Below are positions 9,960-58,045 of a stretch of 64,000 nt of DNA, in pieces; the stretch's first letter is position 1; each line of letters opens with the position of its first letter. Origin of the DNA: Cladochytrium replicatum (lineage: Eukaryota; Chytridiomycota; Chytridiomycetes; Cladochytriales; Cladochytriaceae); assembly GCA_025526935.1 (NCBI GenBank), contig JAHLKD010000019.1, positions 186,001-250,000 of the forward strand, given 5' to 3'. The notes below the pieces were generated by a model, which did no database searches, had not been told where the DNA came from, and was given only the letters and a program-made list of their open reading frames with translations. The position numbers and the translations under genes are program-made.

Positions 9960-10558
9960 TGTTAAGTATTTCGATTGATGGACTTGGCCAATCCAGTCAT
10001 TGATAGTACAAAAACACAAACGCCCGATATACAGAAATGTCACTCTTCACTGAGCAACATTTCTAACTATTGAACTAAAGCATATAGATGATGATCTATT
10101 ACGAGTTTGGATACCTCCGGGTATTTCTTCATGGGTTATATTTATTGCGGCCATAGGTATAGTAAACTGTCATTACTTTTCTATCATCCACTTGTAGAAG
10201 TGAAGCCCGGATCAGATCACAGCAAAGGTTTACATATGATTAACGCGTTCGTGGGAATCATGTGTGAGAACAATCCTGTTGAGGAGAGCTAGATCTCACG
10301 CACAGCTTAGCATGATTATGCTTCGCTACGCCTGTGAGAAGAAGAGTCAAACCTTATCGCTTCGATCCAGATCTTCCGGAAGGAAAAGCCAAAACGACAG
10401 TACACTTATTTAAGGAGCCTGTGGCGATACACACAAGGAGCATTCTCTTGCGCTAGTACTTGTGACTCGCAATCTTCTTTATTCATCTCTTAGAAACATT
10501 AACCCGTGAATTAGCAACACACACAACCTGAGGATCCAGACCACAGCTTTGTTCAACA
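9960..10558 (+). repeat. Copia LTR, 5' LTR of copy E (599 bp)
   Basis: Starts TGTTAAG and ends GTTCAACA. It contains a TATTTAAG promoter-like box (10407-10414). No canonical initiator-tRNA primer binding site is visible after 10558, so the primer of this family is unclear. Confidence 0.9.
10407..10414 (+). promoter_or_regulatory. TATA-like box in copia LTR
   Basis: TATTTAAG lies about 150 bp before the LTR end and about 200 bp before the Gag ATG, and recurs at the same place in the other LTRs. It is the likely core promoter for element transcription. This is position-based inference. Confidence 0.45.
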
Positions 10559-10609
10559 CAATAGTTACGAATTGTTGCTTAACACATTTCTTTGGACAAC
10601 AACGACAAG

Positions 10610-24470: not shown

Positions 24471-24530
24471 GTACATTTGGTCAATTGACCCGGACCGGAC
24501 CTGAAAGACCCAAAAACCTGCCGATCCTTA
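24471..24530 (-). repeat. Fragment of hAT-like element 5' terminus
   Basis: About 60 bp ending GATCCTTA, matching the terminus at 38105-38177 (GACCCG-rich, ending CCGATCCTTA). It is a stranded end with nothing else of the element attached. Confidence 0.65.
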
Positions 24531-26150: not shown

Positions 26151-26158
26151 GGCTTTAA
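26151..26158. repeat. 8-bp target-site duplication, left (GGCTTTAA)
   Basis: Identical to 31001-31008. An 8-bp duplication is the hallmark of hAT transposition. Confidence 0.85.
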
Positions 26159-26366
26159 TAAGGATGGCGGGTTTTAGGGCCTTTCGGGTCGGGTCTGGGT
26201 CCATACCAAATGTACCCGACCCGAGTGCCGGGTTTTCATGGAAAATTTTCGGGTCGGATCCGGGTCGGGTATCGGGTCCAGTAGGAAAACCCTTCTCGGG
26301 TCAAAAATCAGACCCGAGTAAAACCTGATGTGATAGGGAAGCTAAAACGAAGCTATTGTTCTTTCT

Positions 26367-26722
26367 GTCCACACAGACACTTTCCAAGAAGACGCAATAT
26401 AAGTTTTGTATGTATCAAACAATTTGCATCACAACAGACATCGAGGCATGTATTTTCTGTCCACCCAGACACTTTCTCAACATTGACGTACTTCAGTTAT
26501 CTCTACCCAATGCAACTAACCTCTCTATCAATGTTACTAGCAATAGGATTCTGTCCACCCGGACACTTTCTCAACTCATTGACGTACTTCAGTTATCTCT
26601 ACCCAATACAACTAACCTCTCTATGGATACTTTCCAAGGAGTCACAACGGAAGTTCTGTAACAAACAATTTCTACCACGACAGACCTCGAGAGCTGTGCT
26701 TTCTGTGCACCTGGACACTTAG
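26367..26722 (+). repeat. Minisatellite array 5' of transposase, copy 1
   Basis: Four units of about 90-100 bp starting CTGTCCACCCGGACAC or a variant, at about 26367, 26457, 26551 and 26701, with the spacer ACTTTCTCAACTCATTGACG. Each unit carries the palindrome TGTCC-N4-GGACA. Confidence 0.8.
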
Positions 26723-26755
26723 AGTCAGTAACGTTCCAGCCACACCACAGCAAAA

Positions 26756-29196
26756 ATGGATGCCCCCTTTATTAAACCAAAGCGTAAGGCAGCGTCTGAC
26801 GCAAGCCAAAGACTGGTGGACAGTCATCCGCTTGACACACGGAAGCGAAGTCTGCCAGCCCCCCAAATTTCAGAGGCGTCCAGCGAGGGGAACATCATGC
26901 AGGACAAACGCAGACGTGTATCAGGACACGGTGGCAACAACAGCGCTCGAGAGCCGAGCTCCACGTCTTCTTCCAATGACTCCAGCGAGTTGGGCCTGGC
27001 TTCTCAGCATGCACCAGAGCTTCCTGCCGACGTTAGTTTTGCTGACTCTTCAGTGCGACAGGAGCCTGCAGCTGGATCAGTTCAACCATCAATGCTTTCA
27101 TCAGACGCAGATGTTGATAGCATGTCGGACTGTAGAGGTAGTCGAGGCGGCATAGCGAAGGATTACTATAAGGTTGATAATGGTCTGAGAACATGTTTGG
27201 TTGCGAAATGCAAGTGGAGCCAGAAGGTCGATAAGACAGGATCAACAAAAAACTTCCTCCGGCATCTGAAAAACCACCATGGAAGTATTGCCAGGTCGCT
27301 TGGACTGTTGGACATCGTCCCCAAGGGACAACAGACATTGAATTTCGGCTCGCAGGAGAAGGAGCAAAACTTTGTGTTCAATCCAGACGTAGCGTGGCGG
27401 TCGATTTTGGACTGGATTGCTGCAGACAATCAGGCTTTTACTGTTGTGGAGAACGAGTTCTTTGTCAGCATGCTGAAGACTTTTCAGCCAAACTATACAC
27501 CAAAGACGGCAAAAGCAGTGAAGCAAAAGGAGATGGATCTTTACGATAGGCAGAAGGAGCTCATTAAAGGTCTGATTGTTGGTTCGCCTTCAAAAGTATC
27601 AATAACAGCTGACTGTTGGACATCGAAGAACCAGATTTCTTTTCTTGGAATTACTGCCCACTTCATCACGAAAGAATGGGAGCCGCAGGACTTGCTGCTG
27701 CAGATGATTCCGATGGTTGGAAAGCATGAAGGCGTCGCCATGGCTATTCAGCTTGTCAAGTGTCTGGATGAATTTGGCATGCTATTGGGTGAACGCTTAT
27801 TGTGCATTACAACCGACAACGGTTCAAACAACTTTACCATGAGTGCTAAGCTGGAGACGCTCTTGGAAGATAGGGATATTGCGTGGTCTGCAGAAACTCA
27901 ACACATGCGGTGTATGGCACACATTATCAATCTTGCAGCAAAGGATTTTATCGATACATTCGCGCCCGCAGGGGACACAGTCGCAAATGACGATAACTCC
28001 GGCGTTAATGTCATAAACCTTCTTCGACGGCTAGTCAGAGGAATCCGGTCTTCCCCAAAACGACGAAGCTCATTTATTGATTCGTGCCAATTTGTGAAAC
28101 TGGTTCCTCTATTACCAATTATCGATGTGACAACTCGCTGGAATAGCACGTTCTATATGGTCAAACGAGCCTTACAGCTACGAGAGGCAATGGACAAAAT
28201 ATGCTGGATTGAAGATTCTTTGAAAGATTGGTCAATAAATCCAAAGCACTGGGAGGTCCTACAGAAGATCCGGGATGGTTTGAGTGTTTTCGAGGTTATA
28301 TCAAAGACAATCGAGGGGTCTAGATATCCAACACTTCCGCTTGTTATTCCATTTTACAACGATCTTATCGATCAACTGGAGGACCTAGAGGAGGCAGAAT
28401 TGGATGAAACTTTCACCAAAGCATTTCGAAATGCACTAGATAAGCTGAGAATATATTACTCAATCGCTAAGAGCCCGTGTTTAGCAGTTGCTACGGTACT
28501 CGATCCTCGTTTTTAGGATCAATATTATCGATTTTCAAAGGCTTGGGAGAAAGATGTAGGAAGGGATCAGGTCACCCTAGTGCAGAAAGTCTGGGAGGAA
28601 TCGTATAAGTCACGGAAAATCAAGAACAGTGGTGCCGATGTTTTTGGAAACACGCCAGAACGTCGACACGATTCGAGCGGAGCTTCCGGTGATAGACAGA
28701 AAAAAACAGACGCTGAACGCTTGAGAGCCATTAGATCCGTTTTCATCTGGCAAGAAGAGATTCCTGAGGAAAAAGTGAGCTGGATCGCTATCTTGGCGAT
28801 CAGGTACTCCGCGGTATTGATTCTGATGGGAAGCCAATCAATATTATGGACTGGTGGAAGACTGTTGGAAGTGTGAACTTTCCAGCCCTAAGCCAGATGG
28901 CAATGGACTATTTAGGAATACCAGCAACAAGCGCTCCAGTCGAACGAAAGTTTTCAGCCGGGGTTGATTTGGTACCTGCAACTCGCAACCGCCTTGCTCC
29001 AAGAACAATAAATGCGTTGATGTGCCGTCATGACTGGTTGCATCAATTGAGTGCTGAAGAACCCTTCAAAAATGATTCCCTAGATTCGAAAAGTGATATT
29101 AGTGAGGATTTTGTGAAGGTGCATAATTTTGGCGAGGATTTTGATGTGGTATTAGAGTTGGAAGCACCTGATGATAACCCACTCTTTCAAGTATAA
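26756..29196 (+). pseudogene. hAT-family transposase, copy 1
   Basis: Cut-and-paste transposase. N-terminal basic signal (KPKRK), Ser-rich region, a BED-type zinc finger (C-x5-C then HLKNHH, about residues 150-180), catalytic-core pieces ITADCWTSKN and CITTDNGSNN carrying the first two acidic residues, CMAHIINLAAK, and a C-terminal dimerisation domain with YLGIPATSAPVERKFS carrying the Glu. Open from ATG 26756 to TAG at 28514-28516, where copy 3 has an AAG Lys codon, then a frameshift near 28775 (one base lost relative to copy 2). The frame resumes to TAA 29196. Total length would be about 810 aa. Confidence 0.9.
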
Positions 29197-29219
29197 ATTG
29201 TTGTTTAGACTGTTCATCT

Positions 29220-29835
29220 GTTGAAGTACCGTCCAGGAGTTGAGAAAGCGACCGCCTGGACAGAATCCTATTGCGAGTAGTATTTGTAGAGAGGTTGGTT
29301 GTACTTGATCGAGATCAGTGAAGCAATGAGTTGAGAAAGTGTCCGGGTGGACAGAATCTTATTGCTAGTAACATTGATAGAGAGGTTAGCTGTACTTGAT
29401 AGATATCACTGAAGTACCGTCAATGAGTTGAGAAAGTGTCCGGGTGGACAGAATCTTATTGCTAGTAACATTGATAGAGAGGTAGTTGTACTTGATAGAG
29501 ATCACTGAAGTACTGTCAATGAGTTGAGAAAGTGACTGGGTGGACAGAATCAGGGAGACTGAGTGTCACTGTGTCTGTCTGGGTAGCAATAGGATTCTGT
29601 CCCCCCGGACACTTTCTCAGCTCATTGACTATACTTCAGTAATTTCTATCAGGGACAGCTAACCTCTCTACAAATACTACTAGCAATTGGATTCTGTCCA
29701 CCCGGACACTTTCTCAACTCATTGACGGTACTTCAGTGATCTCTATCAAGTACAACTAACCTCTCTATCAATGTTACTAGCAATAAGATTCTGTCCACCT
29801 GGACAGAATCCTCTCTATCAATGTTACTAGCCAGT
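29220..29835. repeat. Minisatellite arrays 3' of transposase, copy 1
   Basis: The same unit as at 26367-26722. About four copies are in reverse orientation (29248, 29339, 29437, 29530), then three in forward orientation (29597, 29694, 29790). The transposase gene is thus bracketed by inverted arrays, and a second inversion point sits near 29570. Confidence 0.8.
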
Positions 29836-29972
29836 TTCTTCCCTAGCTTATTATTATTTTCAGATCAGGTAGAAAACTATAGTGTCAGGGAAGTATTATA
29901 GCATACATTCCTGTAACATTCCGGCTAAGAACACCGGGCCAGTATCTTCCCACGACAAACAGTACAAACACC

Positions 29973-30760
29973 ATGCCTTGAACTACAAAGAAGCGAGCGT
30001 TGAAACAATCCAGACCGTCATCTGAAAGAGAATCAAGTGCAGAACCGGTGACTGCACCTGAAATATCTCTGGGATTGGGTTCTGAAGTGGAAGAAGCAGA
30101 AGTAGGCCTTGATGTCAAATCGACAGATGTCAAATCGACAGATGTCAAATCGACAGATGTCAAATCGACAGATGTCAAATCGACAGCTCCTTCAAAGAAA
30201 CTGGCGCGACGTGGTACTAAAGGGGATGCTGACTATTTGCTCATCGACGGACTCTGTCCTGCTTCAGACATACGACTTTGGTATTGAAAATTCAAAGTAG
30301 GCGGCCACAGCTACGACTCGGAGGACTTCATCAGCAACTGTCAAACAAATCGATGAATGCGGCTTCAAGGGTTGATCGACTGACTTTACTCTGACAGCAA
30401 CCTGGTCAAGCCATCAATGAAATTCATGATGAATGCAGTGGACGAACGGAGTTCATAACAGCAGCAAACGCCTATCGTATGGAGTGCTTGAAAAGCTCTT
30501 CCTTTCAGAAGGAAACAACATTTCTGGACTTTACAGGCGGCAGGGACACAAGTACGGCATTTACAGAGGAATGCCTGTCACTGCAAAGGTTGACGAGTTC
30601 CAAGCGACCATCAAAGTAGCAGATGAGGACTGTGAAAGGACAAAACAGGTCCTCAAACAGTCAGAACGACTGTTGAACATGACAAAAGATCTTGAAGAGA
30701 CTGCAATGAACGAGAGAAGGACCCACATCGCAGCAGAAGTGCGAGAGAACACACTGTCCA
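29973..30760 (+). pseudogene. hAT second ORF, copy 1, truncated
   Basis: Matches the 295-residue first half of the copy 2 accessory ORF (33660-32773). The ATG is at 29973, but codon 3 is TGA in place of Arg CGA. There are further frame breaks near 30290-30420, and the C-terminal half is deleted with a join to the right terminal region near 30755. Five tandem GATGTCAAATCGACA units (30111-30185) encode DVKST repeats; copy 2 has two. Confidence 0.8.
30111..30185 (+). repeat. 15-bp tandem repeat x5 (encodes DVKST)
   Basis: Five perfect copies of GATGTCAAATCGACA, in frame. Two copies occur at the matching place in hAT copy 2 (about 33489-33520). Confidence 0.95.
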
Positions 30761-30834
30761 CACAGACACAAAGTGTTCATGTTAATATCCGTGGTCTAAC
30801 TCAAAGTTCAATCAATCCTCTCGGGCAGCAAAAA

Positions 30835-31000
30835 CTCGGCGGGTCAGGGTCGGGTACGGGTTTCAACCACTTCGGGTCCGGGTATTCCCTTTGTACCCAT
30901 CAGTGACCCGGCGGGTCCCCAGACAGACACGACCTGACCCAAAGGGTTTGATGCGGGTCGCCACTGAAACCCGGACCCGACCCTGACCCGCCGAACCTTA
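30835..31000. repeat. Palindromic GGGTC-rich right terminus of hAT copy 1
   Basis: The left arm contains GGCGGGTCAGGGTCGGGT and the right arm its near-exact reverse complement, so the last ~165 bp can fold back on itself. The same design stands at 31679-31860 in copy 2. Confidence 0.75.
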
Positions 31001-31008
31001 GGCTTTAA
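31001..31008. repeat. 8-bp target-site duplication, right (GGCTTTAA)
   Basis: Identical to 26151-26158. The surrounding 14 bp (TTAGGCTTTAATAA) also match, partly because the element end reads CCTTA. Confidence 0.85.
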
Positions 31009-31179
31009 TAATCTCCCTTCTACAGGTGTTTTATCCTATGAAACCCCCCATTGAACCCAACAGTGCTGTTTTTTACAGCTTCAATCAGGCTTGATACACG
31101 TGGAGCAATATCAGTGCAAATACCGCTCTTAGCACAAAGTGGGTTGAACCTCTCTTAAGCACACTCTGTGTTTCCTTCA

Positions 31180-31678
31180 GCAGCAGCTGTGCTGTAGGAA
31201 CAAAGAATATTCTGAGGAACAATGACTTTGCACTAAAGGTCTGGGGTGATCCAAATGATGCATGGTGCTCAAAATGCCAGGGTCTTGGACACTTTAGGGA
31301 TGGATGCAATGTAACAGGTAATTCTCTCCCTCCTGTCAGTTGCAGAAACAGGGCACGCCATTTTGGTAGTGCAGATTAGAGGAGTGATCCGGCTGGATAC
31401 ATGGACATTGAGGACAGAGGGTGTCATGTGACATGGGCTAGGATTGCAAGAGGGAAGAGGCGTGATAGAGATGGAAGTGTAGAGTCAGGTAGCCTGCAAC
31501 AGCAAGTAGTGAGGATGGCTACAATGGCTCTAGAGATGTCAACGCAATGTGCCAGTGAATTGGAGAAGCTCTGGGCACAGATCACTGAGCAGGAAGCAAC
31601 AGCCCAAGGACTTGGCACTGAGCTTGCCACTCTGAGAAGCCATACAAATGAAGAATTTGCTTCAGTTTGCTCAGAGAT
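31180..31678 (+). pseudogene. Zinc-knuckle gag-like fragment
   Basis: The + strand near 31230-31315 encodes a perfect CCHC knuckle (WCSKCQGLGHFRDGC, C-x2-C-x4-H-x4-C). After a stop at 31378, 31401-31678 encodes a coiled-coil-like Glu/Ala/Leu-rich stretch. It is cut at 31679 by hAT copy 2. It looks like the gag or ORF1 of a retroelement; I cannot name the family. Confidence 0.45.
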
Positions 31679-31977
31679 TAAGGTTTGGCGGGTCCGGGTC
31701 GGGTCCGGGTTTCAGTGGCGACCCGCACCAAACCCTTTGGGTCGGGTCGTGTTTGTCTGGGGACCCGCCGGGTCACTGACGGGTACAAAGGGAATACCCG
31801 GACCCGAAGTGGTTAAACCCGTACCTGACCCTGACCCGCCGGGTTTTTGCTGCCCAGGAGAGGATTGATTGAATTTTGAGTTAGACCACGGATATTTACA
31901 TGAACACTTTGTGTCTGTGTGGACAGTGTGTATTTTAGAAACACTATCGTAAAAAGAAACAAAACTCCACTGAGCAA

Positions 31978-33660
31978 TCACAAGTTGATAGGTGGAACAG
32001 CCCAAATCAGCTTCTGTATCTGGTTCATATCGTCAGAGTCCCATCCACCACTGGTTACATCCTTCGCCAACCCAGTCCTGATGAACCGATCAATGTCGTC
32101 ATTTGAAAGCATGAAATCCTTGGCTAAACCTGTCTTCCAAGGTTTCCAATCCACCTCAGGGAGCGTTATGGACGAAAGATGCCTGATGTATGCCGTCCAG
32201 AACCTTAGCCACTCAGAAGGATATGCATCCACTAATGCCCTGAACATGCGATAGATAGTGGCAGACGTACTTAGCGAATTATTGTGCCGTATCCAGTTTC
32301 TGAGCAAAATGTGCACCCTAAGAAGAGTAAGGCTGCTCCGAGAACTTCTACTTGAAGTTGATATTCGGCTTGAGCGGTCGTCTGATTCAACAAATATGGG
32401 CCGTAAAAACTCATTTTGGGAGAGGACTTCGTAGTTTACATTGACGTACTTGATTGATGGTGGAAGAGACGGCAATTTAAGGTCATAAATAACCTCATTG
32501 ATCTTATGCATCTGGAAGCAGATACCCTGGATGACCTCTTTCACCAAAAGGATAGCCGTACGACGATGCTGCTGCAGGCTAAGCAATGCAAGGGAACTCG
32601 TTGGAGAACTGGTTCGATGTACCTTCGGAATTCTACCAATCCCCTTGATAGCCGACGATATGCTTATTAGGCCGCCTGTTGATGTTGGCACCGCAGGTGC
32701 TGCAGCTTCTGAATGACCAGCCTGTCGTTTCAGAGCAGCAAGCTCTCCCTCCAGGGCGGTCACACGTGATTTCTATTGTGAAATCTCCTGGGAAGTTGCC
32801 TGCTTCTCCCTTTCCATTGCAGCGGTGATCTCCCTGAATCTTGCTAGCTCTTCGTGCTCGCCGTGCTGAATCAATGCACCCGCCCTGCCCAATTCATCAA
32901 TGAGAGCCTTCTCTCGCACTTCTGCTGTGATGCGGGTCCTTCTCTCGTTCATTGCAGTCTCTTCAAGATCTTTTGTCATGTTCAACAGTCGTTCTGACTG
33001 TTTGAGGACCTGTTTTGTCCTTTCACGGTCCTCATCTGCTCGTTTGATGGTCGCTTGGAACTCGTCAACCTTTGCAGTGACGGGCATTCCTCTGTAAATG
33101 CCGTACTTGTGTCCCTGCCGCCTGTAAAAGTCCAGAAATGTTGTTTCCTTCTGAAAGGAAGAGCTTTTCAAGCACTCCATACGATAGGCGTTTGCTGCTG
33201 TTATGAACTCCGTTCGTCCACTGCATTCATCGTGAATTTCGTTCAGGGCTTGACGAACTAGCTTGCTGTCAGAGTTAAGTCGGTCGATCAACCCTTGAAG
33301 AACAAATCTTGGGCCGCATTCATCACGATTTGTTTGACAGTTGCTGATGAAGGCCTCCGAGTCGTAGCTGTGGCCGCTCGCTTTGAATTTTCGATACCAA
33401 AGTCGTATGTCTGAAGCAGGACAGAGTCCGTCGATGAGCAAATAGTCAGCATCCCCTTTAGTACCACGTCGCGCCGGTTTCTTTGAAGGAGCTGTCGATT
33501 TGACATCTGTCGATTTGACATCAAGGCCAACTTCTGCTTCTTCCACTTCAGAACCCGATGCCAGAGATGTTTCAGGTGCAGTCACAGGTTCTGCACTTGA
33601 TTCTCTTTCAGATGATGGTCTGGATTGTTTTAACGCTCGCTTCTTTGTAGTTCGAGGCAT
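31978..33660 (-). pseudogene. hAT second ORF (coiled-coil protein), copy 2, one in-frame stop
   Basis: ATG at 33660, TGA at 31978-31980, 560 codons in one frame broken only by TAG at 32773-32775. Unrecognised family. The N-terminus is basic (MPRTTKKRALKQ) followed by Ser/Glu-rich sequence. The middle (about 60-190) is ordered-looking, with a Trp-Tyr-Arg-Lys patch and FLDFYRRQGHKYGIYRG. About 190-310 is strongly charged with heptad-like spacing, likely coiled coil. The C-terminal ~230 residues are conserved again at 54525-54959. It lies 3' of the transposase on the same strand in both copies, so it is element-encoded. Role unknown; DNA-binding or transposase partner is a guess. Confidence 0.7.
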
Positions 33661-33827
33661 GGTGTTTGTACTGTTTGTCGTGGGAAGATACTGGCCCGGT
33701 GTTCTTAGCCGGAATGTTACAGGAATGTATGCTATAATACTTCCCTGACACTATAGTTTTCTACCCGATCTGAAAATAATAATAAGCTAGGGAAGAAACT
33801 GGCTAGTAATATTGATAGAGAGGATTC

Positions 33828-34060
33828 TGTCCACCCGGACACTTTCTCAACTCATTGACGGTACTTCAGTGATCTCTATCAAGTACAGCTAACCTCTCTA
33901 ATAACGTTACTAGCAATAAGATTCTGTCCACCCGGACACTTTCTCAACTCATTGACGATACTTCACTGATACTTCACTGATCTCGATCAAGTACAACCAA
34001 CCTCTCTACAAATACTACTTGTAATAGGATTCTGTCCAGGCGGTCGCTTTCTCAACTCCT
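33828..34060 (+). repeat. Minisatellite array 3' of transposase, copy 2
   Basis: Three units (about 33828, 33923, 34030) carrying TGTCC-N4-GGACA or a variant, opposite in orientation to the array at 37370-37975. Confidence 0.78.
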
Positions 34061-34104
34061 GGACGGTACTTCAACAGATGAACAGTCTAAACAACAATTT
34101 ATAT

Positions 34105-37100
34105 TTAAAAGAGTGGGTTATCATCAGTTGCTTCCAACTCTAATACCACATCAAAATCCTCGCCAAAATTATGCACCTTTACAAAATCCTCACTAACATC
34201 ACTTTTTGAATCTAGGGAATCATTTTTGAAGGGTTCTTCAGCACTCAATTGATGCAACCAGTCATGACGGCACATCGACGCATTTATTGTTCTTGGAGCA
34301 AGGCGGTTGCGAGTTGCAGGTACCAAATCAACCCCGGCTGAAAACTTTCGTTCGACTGGAGCGCTTGTTGCTGGTATTCCTAAATAGTCCATTGCCATCT
34401 GGCTTAGGGCTGGAAAGTTCACACTTCCAACGGTCTTCCACCAGTCCATAATATTGATTGGCTTCCCATCAGAATCAATACCGCGGAGTACCTGATCGCC
34501 AAGATAGCGATCCAGCGCATCTTTTTCCTCAGGAATCTCTTCTTGCCAGATAAAAACGGATCTAATGGCTCTCAAGCGTTCAGCGTCCGTTTTTTTCTGT
34601 CTATCACCGGAAGCTCCGCTCGAATCGTGTCGACGTTCTGGCGTGTTTCCAAAAACATCGGCACCACTGTTCTTGATTTTCCGTGACTTATACGATTCCT
34701 CCCAGACTTTCCGCACTAGGGTGACCTGATCCCTTCCTACATCTTTCTCCCAAGCCTTTGAAAATCGATAATATTGATCCTAAAAACGAGGATCGAGTAC
34801 CGTAGCAACTGCTAAACACGGGCTCTTAGCGATTGAGTAATATATTCTCAGCTTATCTAGTGCATTTCGAAATGCTTTGGTGAAAGTTTCATCCAATTCT
34901 GCCTCCTCTAGGTCCTCCAGTTGATCGATAAGATCGTTGTAAAATGGAATAACAAGCGGAAGTGTTGGATATCTAGACCCCTCGATTGCCTTTGACATAA
35001 CCTCAAAAACACTCAAACCATCCCGGATCTTCTGTAGGACCTCCCAGTGCTTTGGATTTATTGACCAATCTTTCAAAGAATCTTCAATCCAGCATATTTT
35101 GTCCATTGCCTCATCAACGCATTTATTGTTCTTGGAGCAAGGCGGTTGCGAGTTGCAGGTACCAAATCAACCCCAGCTGAAAACTTTTGTTCGACTGGAG
35201 CGCTTGTTGCTGGTATTCCTAAATAGTCCATTGCCATCTGGTTAGGGGTGGAAAGTTCACACTTCCAACGGTCTTCCACCAGTCCATAATATTGAATCTC
35301 TTCTTGCCAGATGAAAACGGATCTAATGGCTCTCAAGCGTTCAGCGTCCTTTTTTTTTCTGTCTATCACCAGAAGCTCCGCTCGAATCGTGTCGACGTTC
35401 TGGCGTGTTTCCAAAAACATCAGCACCACTTTTCTTGATTTTCCGTGACTAATACGATTCCTCCCAGACTTTCTGCACTAGGGTGACCTGATCCCTTCCT
35501 ACATCTTTCTCCCAAGCCTTTGAAAATCGATAATATTGATCCTTAAAACGAGGATCGAGTACCGTAGCAACTGCTAAACACGGGCTCTTAGGGATTGAGT
35601 AATATGTTCTGAGCTTATCTAGTGCATTTCGAAATGCTTTGGTGAAAGTTTCATCCAATTCTGCCTCCCCTCGATTGCCTTTGACATAACCTCAAAAACA
35701 CTCAAACCATCCCGGATCTTCTGTAGGACCTCCCATTGCTTTGGATTTATTGACCAATCTTTCTAAGAATCTTCAGTCCAGCATATTTTGTCCATTGCCT
35801 CTCGTAGCTGTAAGGCTCGTTTGACCATATAGAACGTGCTATTCCAGCGAGTTGTCACATCGATAATTGGTAATAGAGGAACCAGTTTCACAAATTGGCA
35901 CGAATCAATAAATGAGCTTCGTCGTTTTGGGGAAGACCGGATTCCTCTGACTAGCCGTTAAACAAGGTTTATGACATTCCGTTAAGGAAGGTTTATGACA
36001 TCAACGCTGGAGATATCGACATTTGCGACTGTGTCCCCTGCGGATGCGAATGTATCGATAGAATCCTTTGCTGCAAGATTGATAATGTGTGCCATACACC
36101 GCATGTGTTGAGTTTCTGCAGACCACGCAATATCCCTATCTTCCAAGAGCGTCTCCAGCTTAGCACTCATGGTAAAGTTGTTTGAACCGTTGTCGGTTGT
36201 AAGGCACAATAAGCATTTACCCGATAGCATGCCAAATTCATCCAGACACTTGACAAGCTGACTAGACATGGCGACGCCTTCATGCTTTCCAACCATCGGA
36301 ATCATCTGCAGCAGCAAGTCCTGCGGCTCCCATTCTTTCGTGATGAAGTGGGCAGTAATTCCAAGAAAAGAAATCTGGTTCTTTGATGTCCAACAGTCAG
36401 CTGTTATTGATACTTTTGAAGGCGAACCAACAATCAGACCTTTAACGAGCTCCTTCTGCCTATCGTAAAGATCCATCTCCTTTTGCTTCACTGCTTTTGC
36501 CGTCTTTGGTGTATAGTTTGGCTGAAAAGTCTTCAGCATGCTGACAAAGAACTCGTTCTCCACAACAGTAAAAGCCTGATTGTCTGCAGCAATCCAGTCC
36601 AAAATCGACCGCCACGCTACGTCTGGATTGAACACAAAGTTTTGCTCCTTCTCCTGCGAGCCGAAATTCAATGTCTGTTGTCCCTTGGGGACAATGTCCA
36701 ACAGTCCAAGCGACCTGGCAATACTTCCATGGTAGTTTTTCAGATGCCGGAGGAAGTTTTTTGTTGATCCTGTCTTATCGACCTTCTGGCTCCACTTGCA
36801 TTTCGCAACCAAACATGTTCTCAGACCATTATCAACCTTATAGTAATCCTTCGCTATGCCGCCTCGACTACCTCTACAGTCCGCCATGCTATCAACATCT
36901 GCGTCTGATGAAACCATTGATGGTTGAACTGATCCAGCTGCAGGCTCCTGTCGCACTGAAGAGTCAGCAAAACTAACGTTGGCAGGAAGCTGTGGTGCAT
37001 GCTGAGAAGCCGGGCCCAACTCGCTGGAGTCATTGGAAGAAGATGTGGAGCTCGCGCTCTCGAGCGCTGTTGTTGCCACCGTGTCCTGATACATGTCTGC

Positions 37101-37254
37101 GTTTGTCCTGCATGATGTTCCCCTCGCTGGACGCCTCTGAAATTTGGGGGGCTGGCAGACTTTGCTTCCGTGTGTCAAGCGGATGACTGTCCACCAGTCT
37201 TTGGCTTGCGTCGGACGCTGCCTTACGCTTTGGTTTAATAAAGGGGGCGTCCAT
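34105..37254 (-). pseudogene. hAT transposase, copy 2, rearranged
   Basis: ATG at 37254, end at 34105. The N-terminal half (NLS, BED finger, catalytic Asp motifs) is readable with a frameshift near 37060. The C-terminal portion occurs twice: 35110-35965 lacks part of the dimerisation region and matches hAT copy 3, whereas 34105-35109 is the complete type seen in copy 1, including the same TAG in place of Lys (near 34783). The gene is therefore a fusion of two sublineages by unequal exchange or internal duplication. Confidence 0.85.
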
Positions 37255-37369
37255 TTTTGCTGTGGTGTGGCTGGAACGTTACCGACTCTAATGTCCAGGT
37301 GCACAGAAAGCACAGCTCCCGAGGTCTGTCGTGGTAGAAATTGTTTGTTACAGAACTTCCGTTGTGACT

Positions 37370-37975
37370 TCTTGGAAAGTGTCCGGGTGGACAGAATCGT
37401 ATTGCTAGTAACATTGATAGAGGTTAGTTGTACTGGGTAGAGATAACTGAAGTACGTCAATGAGTTGAGAAAGTGTCCGGGTGGACAGAATCCTATTGCT
37501 AGTAACATTGATAGAGAGGTTAGCTGTATTGGGTAGAGATAACTGAAGTACGTCAATGAGTTGAGAAAGTGTCCGGGTGGACAGAATCTTATTGCTAGTA
37601 ACATTGATAGAGATGTTAGTTTGTACTTGATAGAGATCACTCAAGTACCGTCAATGAGTTAAGAAAGTGTCTGGGTGGACAGAATCTTATTGCTAGTAAC
37701 ATTGATAGAGAGGTTAGCTGTACTTGATAGAGATCACTGAAGTACCGTCAATGAGTTGAGAAAGTGTCCGGGTGGACAGAATTTTATTGCTAGTAACATT
37801 GATAGAGAGGTTAGTTGTATTGGGTAGAGATAACTGAAGTACGTCAATGAGTTGAGAAAGTGTCCGGGTGGACAGAAAATACATGCCTCGATGTCCGTTG
37901 TGATGCAAAATTGTTTGATACATACAAAACTTATATTGCGTCTTCTTGGAAAGTGTCCGCGTGGACAGAAAGAAC
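37370..37975 (-). repeat. Minisatellite array 5' of transposase, copy 2 (about 7 units)
   Basis: Units of about 94-100 bp carrying GTGTCCGGGTGGACAGAA begin near 37380, 37475, 37569, 37667, 37768, 37861 and 37954. Copy 1 has four at this place, so unit number varies. Confidence 0.85.
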
Positions 37976-38198
37976 AATAGCTTCGTTTTAGATTCTCTAT
38001 CACATCGGGTTTTACTCAGGTCTGACTTTTGACCCGAGAAGGGTTTTCCTACTGGACCCGATACCTGACCCGGATCCGACCCGAAAATTTTCCATGAAAA
38101 CCCGGCACTCGGGTCGGGTACATTTAGTCAATGGACCCGGACCCGACCCGAAAGACCCTAAAACCCACCGATCCTTAGTGGTGTCACATGATTTTCCA

Positions 38199-38359: not shown

Positions 38360-38655
38360 ACTCAAATATTTGCCAAATGATAACTATTCGCCAAATATTT
38401 GTCGAATCAAACACAAATATTTGGCGAATAGGAAACATTCTGCAAATACTTTACAAATCAATTAGGCAAATATCTATTTGTCAAATATATTTGGGCAAAT
38501 CAAATATTGTAAAGCATTTGACAAGTGGTATGTCAAATATTTGGCCAGTCAAATGGAGCGTCTGGCATTTGACTGGCGAGTCAAATCAAACGAAGCCACA
38601 AGTGGTCACGAGTCAAAAGTAGCAAAATATTTGACTTGATTTGACTCGTGGCAGA
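38360..38655. repeat. Foldback element rich in CAAATATTTG hairpins
   Basis: Three perfect inverted repeats in under 300 bp: CTATTCGCCAAATATTTG (38384-38401) with its reverse complement at 38414-38431; GCCAGTCAAATG (about 38545) with CATTTGACTGGC; and CACGAGTCAAA with TTTGACTCGTG bounding the right side. The outer edges start GACTCAAATATTTG at left and end ATTTGACTCGTGG at right, so it resembles a MITE. It abuts the truncated LINE. Confidence 0.65.
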
Positions 38656-40748
38656 CCCTTGGCCCGCAAAGTACAAGAACGGAGACAAAACAGAACCTTG
38701 AAAAAGACCAAAAACAAATCGGTAGCATGATTTTCTATAATGACCTGAGAAGAACAACTATCAAACATACTCATCAAAACAGAGATCAAACGGTTTGGAA
38801 TTCTGGGAAATTGACGAAGACGTTCCCACAAAAGAGGCCTATGCACAGTATTATACGCTACTTTAATATCTAAGAAAACAACAATAAGGTAGAGCAGTGC
38901 GGGACGCCCTTCGAAGGGTAGCATCTAATGCAAAACACACTCAACACCTGAACGATTGGCCTGGAAACCAGCTTGGGTGGGTTCAAGTTTACCAACATAA
39001 GCTACAAGCATAGGAAGCAGGGTGCGCTCAAAGATTCTTCTATCAACATTGGTTAAAGTAATGGGGCGGTACTGACTAATATCACCAATGGAGCCCTTAT
39101 TCTTCCAAACAGGTAACAACAAGCCAGCATTCCAGGCAGAGGGCGACAAACCTGAACGGAAAATAGCGTTTGAAAGTTGAACAAAAAGGATAGCAACATC
39201 AGAAGCTAACGGCTTAAATAACTCAGCTGGAATATGGTTTGGGCCAGGAGCAGAGTTGTTTGGGGAAGAACGAATAGCACAAACAAAGTCACTAACACTA
39301 ACTGACACAGAATCATTCAGCGCATGTAGACGAACGTGTTCTGCACTGGCAGAGGATTGTGCAAACTGAGTCTGATAAACGGAGGCAAAGTGATTGCGAT
39401 AATGAGATAAAGAGGCAGGATCAGACAGTAAACCACTTGCAGCTGAGCGCCGTTGATGACACCTACGCGCAGTGGAAAGAACTTTGCTAACCTCGGTTAA
39501 AGAACTGGGAGAAGAACTAAACATATTGTCGCCAGAAGCCTCTCGAGCTCGCTGAGAAAGAGACCAAGTACGAATAGCTTTGACACGCTCACGCGATAGC
39601 CGGTCACGCTCCAAGCGGCAATACTCAACTAAACCAGGATCAGGATCATCACAGGAAGAAACAGCTAAATAGTGCTTATGAGCAAGTAAGTAGCTCCGTC
39701 GCAAGGCCACTAAATGCGGCGGCAACAATGGCAGGGCAGGGCGACGGCGAACTAAACTGGGGGGTCCAATGACACAAGCAGCACACGAAGTAACAAAGGA
39801 AAAAATAATATCCAATGCAGAGTCAATACATCCCTGTGCAACATCCACAGACATTTGGGCAAAGGCGGGAGCTTCTAAAATTGGACTGAGTGCAGCATTG
39901 ACATCAGCAAGGGTGGGATCAAAAAACAAATGTCCCACATCCTCCATTGCTTGAAAGACAGCAGGTTCACGCAACAGATGAGCAGCCCAGCGCTTGTGGG
40001 GGGGTGCAGCAGAGGGAGCGCTGGCATTGGGAGGAGCAAAAGAAAAAACAGCTGTAACCGGAAAATGGTCAGAAGCCCAAGGCATAAACTCGCCGTCGGC
40101 TAGACGACTATGAACTATGTAAGAAATAGGATCACATTGAAGCAGAGGATTGACAAACAACAAATCGATAATGGAGTCACCATTGCGAGAAGAAAATGTG
40201 GGGTTATGACAGGAAGGGTGCTTAACCAGAGAGAAACTAGCGGCAGAAATAAATTGCTCAAACAACCTACCCCTAAGATTTGAAGAATGATCACCAGTAG
40301 CTAAAAAACGGGCATTGAAATCGCCCAACAAAAGAACAGGGCACGGAGACGACGGGACATGTTGAGGAAGTGAAGCAATAAACTCTTCAAGGAAGGGGTC
40401 CTGAGCAATACCACACGGAGGCAAATAATACCCTCCAACCAAAAGCCCACGAAATGTAAACCATAGAGAGGTGCCACCATAACTAGAAACGAGACGGAAA
40501 TCAGAAGCTCTACAAAGACTGCGATTGATCAAGACTCCCACACCAGCCTGTCGTGTACCCGATGACCCAGGAGAAAAACGAGTGTCAAAAATCAAATCTG
40601 GAGAAGGCAGCGGGTCTAAAGGAAAAAGGTGTGTTTCAGTCAGGAGCAGAAAAACAATGTGATTTGCGCGCATAAAACGAAACAGTGAATCAAGAACTCC
40701 AAAGCTCAAATTGCGACAATTGAAGGTACCAACTCGAACACTAATCAT
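38656..40748 (-). pseudogene. LINE ORF2: endonuclease plus truncated reverse transcriptase
   Basis: Starts at ATG 40748, whose bases overlap the stop of ORF1. Residues about 1-240 form an APE-type endonuclease (TFNCRN, TETHLF, LLGDFNAR, SIIDLLFVN, ASDH). RT begins with SAPGPNHIPAELFKPL, SQYRPITLTNVDRRIFER and TQAGF, then a frame break near 38925, DIKVAYNTVHRPLL, and a shifted QGSVLSPFLY box. The sequence stops just before the expected FADD and meets the foldback element, so the element is dead. Confidence 0.87.
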
Positions 40749-42142
40749 TGACGAAGATGGGTTGAGCGAGGCTGACGCGCAATCCCGCGGGCACTGTCCA
40801 GCACAGTTTCCTGAGCATCCATGGGGAGCTGACCACGGACATACAGGAAAATAGCAGGATCAGTAACTGAACTGAGGATATGTGCATATCTCTTGTGGAC
40901 AACTTCCCTGACCGCAGCCTCCCGCTGCTCCAAAGGCAGAGTAGAGGCTCGGCGAAGAAAGTCAGGGTTTGATTCGTCAGTGGAAGCTTCCTGGGTGGAG
41001 AAGTGCGCACGGAGAGCAATTGCGGTTGAGCGAATACAGATAAAGGAAGCAATGTTGCGACCAACGAAACTGATGTGGCGGATACCACGCACCACCTCAT
41101 CGCCCAAGAGAGCCCTCAGCATGGTCCGCACAAAGCCGAGCCGCTGTCTCATGATGTCCTTGATGTACACAGTGGTCAAATCATCCACACGGGCCTGAAG
41201 ATCAGCAGGTGGGGAGACCAGCAGCGGAGAGGTCAGAGGATAGAATACGACAGGCCGAGGGCCACAAAGGCTGACATTCGAAGTGGGGTCACGACCAGCA
41301 AGGGCAGTCCTGACAGCTTCTGTACGAGATTCAGCACTCAGTGTGGGGAGACTCTCAAGCACACGGGCACGGGCATTGGCAGCAGCAGCGGCATAAGTGC
41401 GTGGACCACGAGGTCCACGTGGGGCAGGTCGACTAGACGGGGGGCGAGGGCCAGGAGCACCAGAGTTCCCAAGATTGTCCTGAATTGAAGGATTACCATG
41501 CAGTTGTCTAGGGGGAAGGCACACAGGCGCAGCCACATCATCATGGAGGGAGACAGGGGCAACCGGAGGTGAAGGCGAAGGCAGCGGCCTCCCAAAGCGA
41601 CCCACCAGATCCTCGGCCATATCACGACAAACACTAAAAAATTCAGCAGGAGTGTCCCTCGGCAAGTGTGCAAGCATAGGATCCAGCATCGCCAACGGAT
41701 CAAAGGTTGCACAAACAGATCGCATCTGAGTGAGAACAACACGGAGATCGGCCAGAGATGCAACACTCGAGGGAGCAGCCACAGCAGCAAGAACCCGGAC
41801 ACCCGGCAGATGTGATCGGGAACGAGAACGGGAGCGACCACGGGGCAATTCATGTTCAGCAGGTCTTTTGGCGCGTCGGTCACGTGATCGGAAGTCACGT
41901 GATTCGGCATTTTCATCCTCCCCCATATTCACATCATCGGCCCAGTGAATTGGAGAGGCAGGAGCGGAGAATGGAAGCTGTGGAGCGGAATTTTCAACAG
42001 AGGAGGCACGGGGGTGCGAACGGGCCTCAAAAATCACGGTGCCACCAGAAAGTCCATCAGGGGGCACAGCGGGGGGTGCGGCGGGCGGCGCGGCATGCGG
42101 CGCATCAGGCGGCTGCGCATGCGGAGCGCTGGGAGGCGGCAT
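40745..42142 (-). CDS. LINE ORF1 protein
   Basis: 465 aa, ATG at 42142. The N-terminus is Pro/Ala-rich (repeated AAPPAAPP-like), followed by an Arg/Ser-rich basic patch (about 85-110) and a structured C-terminal half. It probably binds the element RNA, as ORF1 proteins of non-LTR elements do. I see no CCHC knuckle. ORF1 and ORF2 overlap by the tetranucleotide ATGA, which suggests stop-restart translation of ORF2. The frame is intact although ORF2 is not. Confidence 0.75.
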   Translation of the reverse strand: MPPPSAPHAQPPDAPHAAPPAAPPAVPPDGLSGGTVIFEARSHPRASSVENSAPQLPFSAPASPIHWADDVNMGEDENAESRDFRSRDRRAKRPAEHELPRGRSRSRSRSHLPGVRVLAAVAAPSSVASLADLRVVLTQMRSVCATFDPLAMLDPMLAHLPRDTPAEFFSVCRDMAEDLVGRFGRPLPSPSPPVAPVSLHDDVAAPVCLPPRQLHGNPSIQDNLGNSGAPGPRPPSSRPAPRGPRGPRTYAAAAANARARVLESLPTLSAESRTEAVRTALAGRDPTSNVSLCGPRPVVFYPLTSPLLVSPPADLQARVDDLTTVYIKDIMRQRLGFVRTMLRALLGDEVVRGIRHISFVGRNIASFICIRSTAIALRAHFSTQEASTDESNPDFLRRASTLPLEQREAAVREVVHKRYAHILSSVTDPAIFLYVRGQLPMDAQETVLDSARGIARQPRSTHLRQ

Positions 42143-42331: not shown

Positions 42332-42413
42332 GGTGATATGGCCGAGTTGGTTAAGGCGTGGGTCTCAAGTTCCCATCTCGAAAGAGGCAGGAGTTCGAAT
42401 CTCCTTGCCTCCA
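42332..42413 (+). tRNA. tRNA-Leu(CAA)-like gene, acceptor stem mispaired
   Basis: 82 nt with a D-arm (TGGCCGAGTTGGTTAAGGC), anticodon loop CTCAAGT (anticodon CAA), a long variable arm TCTCGAAAGA typical of class II tRNAs, and a T-arm AGGAG-TTCGAAT-CTCCT. The acceptor strands GGTGATA and TGCCTCC form only four Watson-Crick pairs and one wobble, with two mismatches. No T-run terminator follows closely. It may be a pseudogene or a recombined tRNA. Confidence 0.6.
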
Positions 42414-52129: not shown

Positions 52130-54025
<1,896 letters not shown>

Positions 54026-54519: not shown

Positions 54520-54959
54520 AACAATCACAAGTTGATAGATGGAACAGCCCATATCAGCTTCTGTATCTGGTTCATATCGTCAGAGTCCCATCCACCACTG
54601 GTTATGTCCTTTGCCAACCCAGTCCTGATAAACTGATCAATGTCGTCATTTGAAAACATCAAATCCTTGGCTAAACCTGTCCTCCAAGGTTTCCAATCCA
54701 CCTCAGGGAGCATTATGGACAACAGTTGGCGGATGTATGCCATCCAGAACCTTAGCCACTCAGAAGGATATGCATCCACTAATGCTCTGAACATGCAATA
54801 GATAGTGGCAGAAGTACTTAGCGAGTTGTTGTGCCGTATCCAGTTTCCGAGCAAAATGCGCACCCTAAGAAGAGTAAGGCCACTCTGAGCACTGCTACAT
54901 GAAGTTGATCTTTGGCTTGAGCGTTTGTCAGATTCAAAGAAGATGGGCCTAACATTCAT
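54520..54959 (-). pseudogene. hAT second-ORF fragment (C-terminal ~145 residues)
   Basis: The open frame 54959-54525 closely matches the end of the copy 2 second ORF (31978-32400), including LLRVRILLGNWIRHNNSLS, YPSEWLRFW and the C-terminal AVPSINL. No transposase or terminus is attached. It shows this protein is repeated in the genome and that its C-terminal part tolerates only substitutions here. Confidence 0.8.
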
Positions 54960-55370: not shown

Positions 55371-55397
55371 GAACTTCATATGATTGGTGGTGAGCAA

Positions 55398-58045
55398 AAA
55401 GGATCGGCGGGTTTTAGGGTCTTTCGTGTTGGGTCCAGGTCCATTGACCAAATGTACCCGACCTGATTGCCGGGTTTTCATGAAAAATTTTCGGGTCGGA
55501 TCCGGGTCGGGTATCGGGTCCAGTAGGAAAACCCTTCTCGGGTCAAAAGTCAGACCCGAGTAAAACCCGATGTGATAGAGAAGCTAAAACGAAGCTATTG
55601 TTCTTTCTGTCCACGCGGACACTTTCCAAGAAGACGCAATATAAGTTTTGTATGTATCAAACAATTTTGCATCACAACAGACATCGAGGCATGTATTTTC
55701 TGTCCACCCGGACACTTTCTCAACTCATTGACGTACTTCAGTTATCTCTACCCAATACAACTAACCTCTCTATGGACACTTTCCAAGAAGTCACAACGGA
55801 AGTTCTGTAACAAACAATTTCTACTACGACAGACCTCGAGAGCTGTGCTTTTTGTGCACCTGGACACTTAGAGTCGGTAACGTTCCAGCCACACCACAGC
55901 AAAAATGGACGCCGCCTTTGTTAAACCAAAGCGTAAGGTAGCGTCTGACGCAAGCCAAAGACTGGTGGACAGTCATCCGCTTGACACACGGAAGCAAAGT
56001 CTGCCAGCCCCCCAAATTTCAGAGGCGTCCAGCGAGGGGAAAAGCATGCAGGACAAACGCAGACGTGTATCAGGACACGGTGGCAACAACAGCGCTCGAG
56101 AGCCGAGCTCCACGTCTTCTTCCAATGACTCCAGCGAGTTGGGCCTGGCTTCTCAGCATGCACCAGAGCTTCCTGCCGACGTTAGTTTTGCTGACTCTTC
56201 AGTGCGACAGGAGCCTGCAGCTGGATCAGTTCAACCATCAATGGTTTCATCAGACTCAGATGTTGATAGCATGGCGGACTGTAGAGGTAGTCGAGGCGGC
56301 ATAGCGAAGGATTACTATAAGGTTGATAATGGTCTGAGAACATGTTTGGTTGCGAAATGCAAGTGGAGCCAGAAGGTCGATAAGACGGGATCAACAAAAA
56401 ACTTCCTCCGGCACCTGAAAAACCACCATGGAAGTATTGCCAGGTAGCTTGGACTGGATTGCTGCAGACAATCAGGCTTTTACTGTTGTGGAGAACGAGT
56501 TCTTTGTCAGCATGCTGAAGACTTTTCAGCCAAACTATACACCAAAGACGGCAAAAGCAGTGAAGCAAAAGGAGATGGATCTTTACGATAGGCAGAAGGA
56601 GCTCGTTAAAGGTCTGATTGTTGGTTCGCCTTCAAAAGTATCAATAACAGCTGACTGTTGGACATCGAAGAACCAGATTTCTTTTCTTGGAATTACTGCC
56701 CACTTCATCACGAAAGAATGGGAGCCGCAGGACTTGCTGCTGCAGATGATTCCGATGGTTGGAAAGCATGAAGGTGTTGCCATGGCTAGTCAGCTTGTCA
56801 AGTGTCTGGATGAATTTGGCATGCTATCGGGTGAACGCTTATTGTGCATTACAACTGACAATGGTTCAATCAACTTTACCATGAGTGCTAAGCTGGAGAC
56901 GCTCTTGGAAGATAGGGATATTGCGTGGTCTGCAGAAACTCAACACATGCGGTGTATGGCACACATTATCAATCTTGCAGCAAAGGATTCTATCGATACA
57001 TTCGCATCCGCAGGGGACACAGTCGCAAATGTCGATATCTCCAGCGTTGATGTCATAAACCTTCCTTAACGGAATGTCATAAACCTTGTTTAACGGCTAG
57101 TCAGAGGAATCCGGTCTTCCCCAAAACGACGAAGCTCATTTATTGATTCGTGCCAATTTGTGAAACTGGTTCCTCTATCACCAATTATCGATGTGACAAC
57201 TCGCTGGAATAGCAGGTTCTATATGGTCAAACGAGCCTTACAGCTACGAGAGGCAATGGACAAAATATGCTGGACTGAAGATTCTTTGAAAGATTGGTCA
57301 ATAAATCCAAAGCAATGGGAGGTCCTACAGAAGATCCGGGATGGTTTGAGTGTTTTTGAGGTTATGTCAAAGGCAATCGAGGGGTCTAGATATCGTACAC
57401 TTCCGCTTGTTATTCCATTTTACAACGATCTTATCGATCAACTGGAGGACCTAGAGGAGGCAGAATTGGATGAAACTTTCACCAAAGCATTTCGAAATGC
57501 ACTAGATAAGCTCAGAACATATTACTCAATCCCTAAGAGCCCGTGTTTAGCAGTTGCTACGGTACTCGATCCTCGTTTTAAGGATCAATATTATCGATTT
57601 TCAAAGGCTTGGGAGAAAGATGTAGGAAGGGATCAGGTCACCCTAGTGCAGAAAGTCTGGGAGGAATCGTATTAGTCACGGAAAATCAAGAAAAGTGGTG
57701 CTGATGTTTTTGGAAACACGCCAGAACGTCGACACGATTCGAGCAGAGCTTCCGGTGATAGACAGAAAAAAACGGACGCTGAACGCTTGAGAGCCATTAG
57801 ATCCGTTTTCATCTGGCAAGAAGAGATTCAATATTATGGACTGGTGGAAGACCGTTGGAAGTGTGAACTTTCCACCCCTAACCAGATGGCAATGGACTAT
57901 TTAGGAATACCAGCAACAAGCGCTCCAGTCGAACAAAAGTTTTCAGCTGGGGTTGATTTGGTACCTGCAACCCGCAATCGCCTTGCTCCAAGAACAATAA
58001 ATGTGTTGATGTGCCGTCATGACTGGTTGCATCAATTGAGTGCAT
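55398..58045 (+). mobile_element. hAT-like transposon copy 3, 3'-truncated
   Basis: The left end AGGATCGGCGGGTTTTAGGG and GGGTC-rich region (to 55565) are followed by two to three minisatellite units and the transposase. The element stops at 58045, where copia-like DNA begins. There is no second ORF and no right end. Confidence 0.8.
55905..58045 (+). pseudogene. hAT transposase, copy 3
   Basis: ATG at 55905. BED finger and both Asp motifs are present (ITADCWTSKN; CITTDNGSIN). Defects: a deletion after HGSIA near 56445 removing about 37 residues, stops near 57069 and 57675 and a deletion in the linker (EEIQYYGLVEDRW), and truncation at HDWLHQLSA. The deletion set is shared with part of copy 2 (35110-37254), so the two descend from one defective source. 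The Lys codon that is TAG in copy 1 is AAG here. Confidence 0.87.

What the first reader, a model, noticed from the sequence alone, without database searches (positions are those of the whole stretch)
26159..38177. A two-gene hAT-like transposon with an unrecognised accessory protein
Copies 1 and 2 share one plan: GGGTC-rich end, minisatellite units, BED-finger hAT transposase, inverted units, a second ORF of about 560 codons on the same strand, palindromic GGGTC-rich end. Copy 1 has a perfect 8-bp target duplication around both genes, so they moved as one unit. Most hAT elements I know carry only a transposase; CACTA, Mutator and Harbinger types carry helpers. The second protein has no family I recognise.
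Basis: partly seen in the sequence, partly recalled or inferred. Interest (0 to 1): 0.85.

Follow-up and report, generated by a model that had tools for sequence, protein, structure and literature searches.

The report
Two-gene hAT jumping gene family
A young, abundant cut-and-paste jumping gene in this genome usually carries, besides its transposase, a second gene for a basic, probably coiled-coil protein of no recognised family; jumping genes of this class with extra genes are already known in fungi, but this extra protein is not recognised.

Summary
The element is real, and better attested elsewhere in the genome than in the window. The window copies (26159-31000 +, 31679-38177 -) are damaged members of one hAT family ending in TAAGG...CCTTA. 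Whole-genome probe counts (up to 3 mismatches): 5' end 279, 3' end 309, transposase core 243, ORF2 start 292. Of 18 two-ended elements read, 5 have both normal frames open: 811-aa transposase and 560-aa ORF2. Of 40 elements delimited by exact probes, 29 hold both gene probes, 5 the transposase probe only, 4 ORF2 only, 2 neither; exact matching overstates losses. Perfect 8-bp duplications flank 12 of 18, including two ORF2-only elements. ORF2 is thus a regular part of a mobile unit. ORF2 has no Pfam or PDB relative and no confident fold; a hint of purifying selection is not significant (P about 0.08). Multi-gene hATs are in print for fungi (H3L plus an unknown ORF; TET/JBP), so this is a new variant of a known kind. 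A helper role is inferred, not shown.

The parts
26151..26158 (.). Copy 1 left target-site duplication GGCTTTAA
26159..31000 (+). Copy 1: internally deleted 4,842-bp element, TAAGG...CCTTA
26159..26454 (+). Copy 1 5' end, GGGTC-rich
26455..26624 (+). Copy 1 minisatellite units, + orientation
26756..29196 (+). Copy 1 transposase gene, broken (stop at 28514-28516, 1-bp deletion)
29222..29551 (-). Copy 1 inverted minisatellite units after the transposase gene
29584..29974 (+). Copy 1 + units and leader before ORF2
29973..30749 (+). Copy 1 ORF2 remnant (about 760 of 1,680 bp, frame broken)
30837..31000 (+). Copy 1 3' end, palindromic (about 30-bp arms)
31001..31008 (.). Copy 1 right target-site duplication GGCTTTAA
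31679..38177 (-). Copy 2: 6,499-bp element, no target duplication
31679..31843 (-). Copy 2 3' end
31978..33660 (-). Copy 2 ORF2, full length, one in-frame TAG (codon 296)
33821..34073 (.). Copy 2 minisatellite between ORF2 and the transposase gene
34108..37254 (-). Copy 2 transposase gene, rearranged with duplicated pieces
37372..37877 (-). Copy 2 minisatellite units upstream of the transposase gene
37878..38177 (-). Copy 2 5' end
55399..58043 (+). Copy 3 fragment: 5' end, units, broken transposase gene
54526..54952 (-). Older ORF2 fragment (last 427 bp, about 91.5% identical)

Best explanation
This is a hAT-superfamily cut-and-paste transposon that normally encodes two proteins. Layout: 5' end with clustered GGGTC sites; + minisatellite array; transposase (811 aa); inverted array; short + array; ORF2 (560 aa); palindromic GGGTC-rich 3' end. 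SHOWN: the layout, 8-bp duplications, hAT motifs, high copy number, and that units holding both genes, or ORF2 alone, are enclosed by target duplications. INFERRED: the transposase binds the subterminal GGGTC sites, cuts at TAAGG/CCTTA and inserts with an 8-bp stagger; the like-oriented arrays upstream of both genes act as shared regulatory leaders; ORF2, basic (pI 9.05) with a likely central coiled coil, is a long-resident accessory protein that binds DNA or the transposase and helps expression, end pairing or movement. ORF2-only elements arise when the two like-oriented arrays recombine and drop the transposase gene; they are then moved in trans.
For: Five of the 18 two-ended elements read (L023, L024, L025, L027, L031) have both normal frames open; L033 has both open with a duplication inside ORF2. 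Of the 78 ORF2 places scored (of 1,097 candidates, best first) 55 are stop-free; 48 have a same-strand hAT dimer domain 0-5 kb upstream, against 3 opposite-strand and 1 downstream as controls; 19 are stop-free with a transposase frame of 804 aa or more upstream. Exact probes: 57 of 90 transposase cores have an ORF2 start 0-6 kb downstream on the same strand, against 4 on the opposite strand; 29 of 40 delimited elements have both. ORF2-start sites (292) are as common as the ends (279, 309), so ORF2 is not confined to a few copies. ORF2-only elements with perfect 8-bp duplications and open frames: L037:122-2959 and L038:6642-8854. Dimer_Tnp_hAT E = 2.2e-20 and Hermes matches at 4e-12; motifs TADCWTS, TT[D/N]NGSNN, C..H, RW, APVERKFS. 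ORF2 codon usage is nearest to ORF1 (0.12) and a copia gene (0.13) among seven other genes compared, with GC3 0.48 versus 0.46 (ORF1) and 0.62-0.74 (three host genes). Changes seen in one copy only look neutral (1.04 and 1.07); changes shared by 2 or more copies give 0.80 (ORF1) and 0.56 (ORF2).
Against: The selection signal is not significant (ORF2 P = 0.08, with 13 silent, 18 replacement and 1 stop among shared changes; ORF1 P = 0.24). Five of 40 exact-probe elements lack the ORF2-start probe, and at least 3 of these cannot hold a whole ORF2 with its leader, so ORF2 can be lost. One host gene (GMC) is also close to ORF2 in codon usage (0.15). ORF2 has no known domain and its predicted structure is poor (mean pLDDT 44). 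No expression data. Six of 18 two-ended elements have no duplication, perhaps from recombination between copies. ORF2 relatives in other eukaryotes could not be searched.
Confidence: 0.55

Rival explanations
1. ORF2 is a captured host gene (transduplication) that rides along without helping transposition.
For: Known for fungal hATs: histone H3 capture in Pyrenophora and Pseudocercospora, and TET/JBP transmission between fungal transposons is described as passive (passage). Some delimited elements have lost ORF2 (at least 3 of 40). Copies are too young for a strong selection test.
Against: No progenitor or diverged paralogue turned up, but the test is weak: the 78 places scored of 1,097 are all 96% or more identical, and two codon-shifted patterns found none. 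Codon usage is nearest to the transposase. An older copy has the same transposase-array-ORF2 order at about 84-95% nucleotide identity (L039/L050).
Confidence: 0.27
2. ORF2 is not needed for cutting but protects the element, for example by countering host silencing.
For: Fungal hAT7 elements carry TET/JBP, an enzyme class that removes methylcytosine (passages; abstract start). Elements without the ORF2-start probe occur. ORF2 is open in ORF2-only elements L037 and L038.
Against: No enzymatic domain in ORF2. No methylation or silencing data for this host.
Confidence: 0.15
3. The ORF2 frame is a chance open frame in an internal non-coding segment.
For: No domain and a weak selection signal.
Against: A 560-codon frame at about this GC content is not expected by chance; 55 of the 78 best-scoring places are stop-free (biased to the best); codon usage matches other element genes.
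Confidence: 0.03

Closest known systems
Pyrenophora tritici-repentis hAT element with H3L (PMC3538342, section 20 part 1 of 2 read)
   Different: About 5.6 kb, also carries a histone H3-like gene, and its short form keeps a chimeric transposase end; no minisatellite arrays are described in the part read; sequences not compared here
hAT7 TET+ elements of rust fungi (PMC12730594, passages)
   Same: hAT transposase plus an accessory gene in one fungal element
   Different: 7-bp instead of 8-bp duplications; the accessory gene is a TET/JBP dioxygenase, whereas ORF2 here has no such domain
Pseudocercospora fijiensis H3-carrying hAT (PMC6710886, passages)
   Same: 8-bp duplication, high copy number, extra gene inside the element
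   Different: Captured histone H3, copies inactivated by RIP; here a number of copies are open
PIF/Harbinger two-protein elements (PMC2836001, start of abstract in a search listing)
   Same: Two element-encoded proteins; there both are needed for movement
   Different: Different superfamily; a need for ORF2 is untested here

Membership tests
hAT superfamily | hAT C-terminal dimerisation domain | tested here: met
   PF05699 E = 2.2e-20, above its cut-off; Hermes chains E 4e-12. The hAT-like RNase-H model scores below its cut-off (23.6 of 27 bits)
hAT superfamily | Catalytic D, D, E with C..H and RW motifs (recalled motifs) | tested here: met
   TADCWTS, C..H, RW, APVERKFS and TT[D/N]NGSNN; in copy L023 the second D is N, in L019, L024, L025, L027 and L031 it is D
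hAT superfamily | 8-bp target-site duplication | tested here: met
   Perfect in 12 of 18 two-ended elements
hAT superfamily | Short terminal inverted repeats of the YARNG type (recalled) | tested here: met
   TAAGG...CCTTA (one of 12 two-type-ended elements printed there, L019, ends CCTT plus T)
hAT superfamily | Subterminal clustered binding-type motifs | tested here: met
   GGGTC/GACCC 9 + 11 in the ends versus 2 elsewhere in L024; binding itself not tested
Fungal hAT7 TET+ group | 7-bp duplication and TET/JBP gene | tested here: not met
   8-bp duplications; no TET/JBP hit in ORF2
Transduplicated host gene | Identifiable host progenitor | tested here: inconclusive
   None seen, but only 78 of 1,097 candidates were scored, family copies first, and the patterns are insensitive
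Two-component transposon (both proteins required) | Transposition fails without the second protein | not testable with these tools
   Needs an assay

The most novel reading that the evidence does not exclude
ORF2 founds a new family of transposon-borne helper proteins that makes this hAT lineage a true two-component system, and ORF2-only elements are mobile satellites that supply the helper while borrowing the transposase: a division of labour within one family.
Probability: 0.2. Interest if true: 0.65.

Novelty: new variant of a known kind. Interest (0 to 1): 0.42.

Why it matters
hAT elements are usually treated as one-gene machines. A young, high-copy family with many near-identical two-gene copies (at least 19 places with both frames long and stop-free), plus natural ORF2-only variants and variants that have lost ORF2 sequence, is a ready comparison for whether hAT transposition can depend on, or be shielded by, an element-encoded partner.

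Tried and rejected
Tried without result: Pfam and PDB sequence searches for ORF2 gave only coiled-coil-type noise. Viral contigs, bacterial/archaeal genomes and phages held no relative; these find close relatives only and do not cover eukaryotes properly. Two codon-shifted patterns for diverged ORF2: one search gave 6 hits, each one base away from the pattern and reading as family-like sequence; one search gave none. Looking for diverged hAT families, one Pfam model (150 scored of 237) and an 81%-identical fragment (40 scored of 262) led, in the 8 loci fetched, to old or broken copies of this family. Replacement/silent tests were inconclusive; copies covering under 40% of an ORF, and L047-L050, were left out. 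The AlphaFold model of ORF2 is poor (mean pLDDT 44), so I ran no fold search. Host identity was not resolved: ATP synthase beta gave no clear answer; GH43 and GMC genes only suggest a fungus. Literature searches for two-ORF or accessory-gene hATs.

Rejected: that ORF2 is merely next to the element (target duplications enclose it); that copy 1 carries an intact ORF2; that hAT elements with extra genes are unknown. In checking I found that exact matching misleads: of its 4 'ORF2 only' elements one (C49:330131) and of its 2 'neither' elements one (C49:307101) do contain a hAT dimer domain listed.
Full report
WHAT IS THERE. The window lies in a 50.5-Mb, 198-contig genome of a eukaryote, judged from its genes and retroelements. 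Copy 1 (26159-31000 +) and copy 2 (31679-38177 -) are two members of one repeat family lying tail to tail. Using their ends as probes, the family proved abundant: with up to 3 mismatches the genome holds 279 sites for the 5' end, 309 for the 3' end, 243 for a transposase-core probe and 292 for the ORF2 start; the reversed-pattern control gave 0 each time. I read 20 regions around 5'-end hits and 6 more regions, besides 24 short loci returned by searches.

ANATOMY. The two-gene elements read run from 6.5 to 8.7 kb. Order: 5' end (300 bp); + array of 97-bp units (2-7 in copies checked); short leader; ORF1 of 811 codons; inverted array (up to 11 units); a short + array; 154-bp leader; ORF2 of 560 codons; 135 bp; 166-bp 3' end whose outer parts are complementary over about 30 bp. 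Termini are TAAGG...CCTTA (L019 has one changed end base). GGGTC/GACCC occurs 9 times in the first 160 bp and 11 in the last 160 bp of copy L024, and twice in the rest.

TRANSPOSASE. ORF1 matches the hAT dimerisation domain (E = 2.2e-20); the hAT-like RNase-H model matches below its cut-off (6.2e-5), and the BED finger is not supported (E = 4.6). PDB matches are to Hermes (4e-12). The usual hAT catalytic motifs (recalled) are present. Copy L023 has N for D in the second of them, whereas L019, L024, L025, L027 and L031 have D; so L023's open frame is probably not an active enzyme.

MOBILITY. Of 30 5' ends in the sequence searched, 18 have a 3' end on the same strand within 10 kb and 12 do not (cut by the stretch, nested or truncated). 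Of the 18, 12 have a perfect 8-bp target duplication: L019, L020, L021, L023, L027, L029, L031, L032, L037, two in L038, and window copy 1. L018, L024, L025, L028, L033 and window copy 2 do not (the two L038 boundaries come, because the automatic extension overshot there and printed mismatches). All 18 keep at least 304 bp of ORF2. None of the 18 has a complete transposase gene and no ORF2 sequence; but ORF2 abuts the 3' end, so internal deletions tend to leave some of it.

HOW REGULAR IS ORF2? Five of the 18 have both normal frames open (L023, L024, L025, L027, L031). Of the 78 ORF2 places scored (out of 1,097 candidates, best first), 55 are stop-free; 48 have a same-strand hAT dimer domain 0-5 kb upstream (from the 150 scored of 297), versus 3 on the opposite strand and 1 downstream; 19 are stop-free with a transposase frame of at least 804 aa. 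Because only the best matches are scored, these are not family-wide rates. The probe lists show the first 100 exact matches each; restricted to contigs C1-C61, where the lists appear complete, I used 97, 80, 90 and 99 places (3, 20, 10 and 1 beyond C61 dropped). Of the 97 5' ends, 56 have no exact 3' end within 10.5 kb, 1 meets another 5' end first, and 40 form elements: 29 hold both gene probes, 5 only the transposase probe, 4 only the ORF2 probe and 2 neither. Exact matching overstates losses: one 'ORF2 only' and one 'neither' element contain a dimer domain. Of the five without the ORF2 start, three have core-to-3'-end spacings (1,579, 2,333 and 2,337 bp) too short for ORF2 with its leader (2,405 bp); their transposase frames are 203, 784 and 164 aa. 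The other two (C23:465000 and C8:13963) share a spacing of 2,629 bp and have 819-aa frames; whether they hold a working ORF2 is open, as I could not read them. The 18 plus-strand two-gene elements span 2,457-6,060 bp over the same distance.

ORF2-ONLY ELEMENTS. L037:122-2959 is 5' end, 4 units, ORF2 leader, open ORF2, 3' end, with a perfect duplication, sitting inside a decayed transposase fragment about 81% identical. L038:6642-8854 is shorter at the 5' side, also with open ORF2 and a perfect duplication. Three further exact-probe elements of 2.6-3.0 kb (C9, C10, C50) look alike but were not read. The arrays before ORF1 and before ORF2 have the same orientation, so recombination between them would remove ORF1 and leave the L037 form (inference). 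L034 is different: two 5'-type ends around ORF2, with palindromic flanks.

WHAT IS ORF2? 63 kDa, pI 9.05. No Pfam match above noise (best E 0.75) and no PDB match beyond E 0.39, mostly coiled coils. No close relative in viral, bacterial/archaeal or phage collections. The single-sequence AlphaFold model (559 residues from window copy 2, its one TAG read through) is poor (mean pLDDT 44, pTM 0.24); only residues about 200-310 reach block means of 55-73, and they form long helices. A basic protein with a likely central coiled coil is the most I can say. Its codon usage is nearest to ORF1 (0.12) and the copia gene (0.13) among the seven other genes compared, though the host GMC gene is close (0.15); its GC3 (0.48) is like ORF1 (0.46) and unlike three host genes (0.62-0.74). 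This weakly favours long residence in mobile DNA.

SELECTION. With 25 ORF1 and 21 ORF2 copies, changes found once look neutral (ratio to neutral expectation 1.04 and 1.07), while changes shared by two or more copies give 0.80 (ORF1, P = 0.24) and 0.56 (ORF2, P = 0.08); for three or more, 0.69 (P = 0.26) and 0.47 (P = 0.07). ORF2 looks no less constrained than the transposase, but nothing here is significant: the copies are too young. An older copy, L039/L050, shows the same order (transposase end, inverted units, ORF2 leader, ORF2 start) at about 84-95% identity, so the arrangement probably predates the recent burst; only about the first 48 codons of ORF2 remain there before another copy interrupts it.

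MECHANISM. Shown: both genes, or ORF2 alone, lie inside units enclosed by 8-bp duplications. Inferred from hAT biology: the transposase recognises the subterminal GGGTC clusters and performs cut-and-paste. Inferred: arrays upstream of both genes act as common regulatory leaders. Guessed: ORF2 is an accessory protein. My odds: 0.55 for an integral accessory gene that helps movement or expression, 0.27 for a captured passenger, 0.15 for a purely protective function, 0.03 for a chance frame.

COMPARISON. Multi-gene hATs are already printed for fungi: the Pyrenophora element with transposase, central ORF of unknown function and H3L (PMC3538342, section 20 part 1 read), the Pseudocercospora H3 carrier (PMC6710886, passages), and rust hAT7 elements with TET/JBP (PMC12730594, passages). 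Grapevine authors also examined long hATs for captured sequences (PMC2528002, passages). I could not compare sequences with these. This accessory protein, the paired minisatellite arrays and the ORF2-only forms were not met in the searches, which cover only open-licence papers and were seen mostly as listings.

VERDICT. New variant of a known kind; interest 0.42.

Noticed in passing
window 54526-58043: A third, older and broken member of the same family: 5' end and transposase pieces on +, with a separate ORF2 end piece on - (about 91.5% identical).
   Followed up: partly
window 24471-24530 (-): A lone 60-bp fragment of the 5' end of the same family (92% identical).
   Followed up: no
L034:203-3266: An element with two 5'-type ends around ORF2 whose flanking DNA is also palindromic: either a large inverted duplication or an assembly fold-back.
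   Followed up: partly
L023:3967-6399 (-), second catalytic Asp: An otherwise full-length, open transposase with N in place of D in the TTDNGSNN motif, probably catalytically dead although the element has a perfect duplication.
   Followed up: partly
L033:3153-9775: ORF2 with an in-frame internal duplication (open frame of 623 aa from its first Met instead of 560).
   Followed up: no
C23:465000-470910 and C8:8080-13990 of the genome: Two elements of nearly the same length (5,911 and 5,913 bp) with identical spacing from transposase core to 3' end, suggesting one shared deletion form that spread.
   Followed up: partly
window 2978-13867 and 58355-61320: Several copia-type retroelement pieces (RVT_2 and Pol_BBD in the two tested); similar frames lie in or next to hAT copies in L026 and L036.
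   Followed up: partly
window 38613-42142 (-), tRNA at 42332-42413: A LINE-type element (endonuclease-reverse transcriptase) whose 5' side has a CT-rich microsatellite and, about 190 bp from its first frame, a tRNA gene; a similar microsatellite precedes a related element in L037.
   Followed up: no
window 38363-38553: Four near-copies of a 20-bp motif beginning CAAATATTTG, spaced 22-120 bp, just outside copy 2.
   Followed up: no
window 19706-20893, 45434-46843, 52670-53692: Host-type genes: GMC oxidoreductase, GH43 glycosidase, mitochondrial-type ATP synthase beta.
   Followed up: partly
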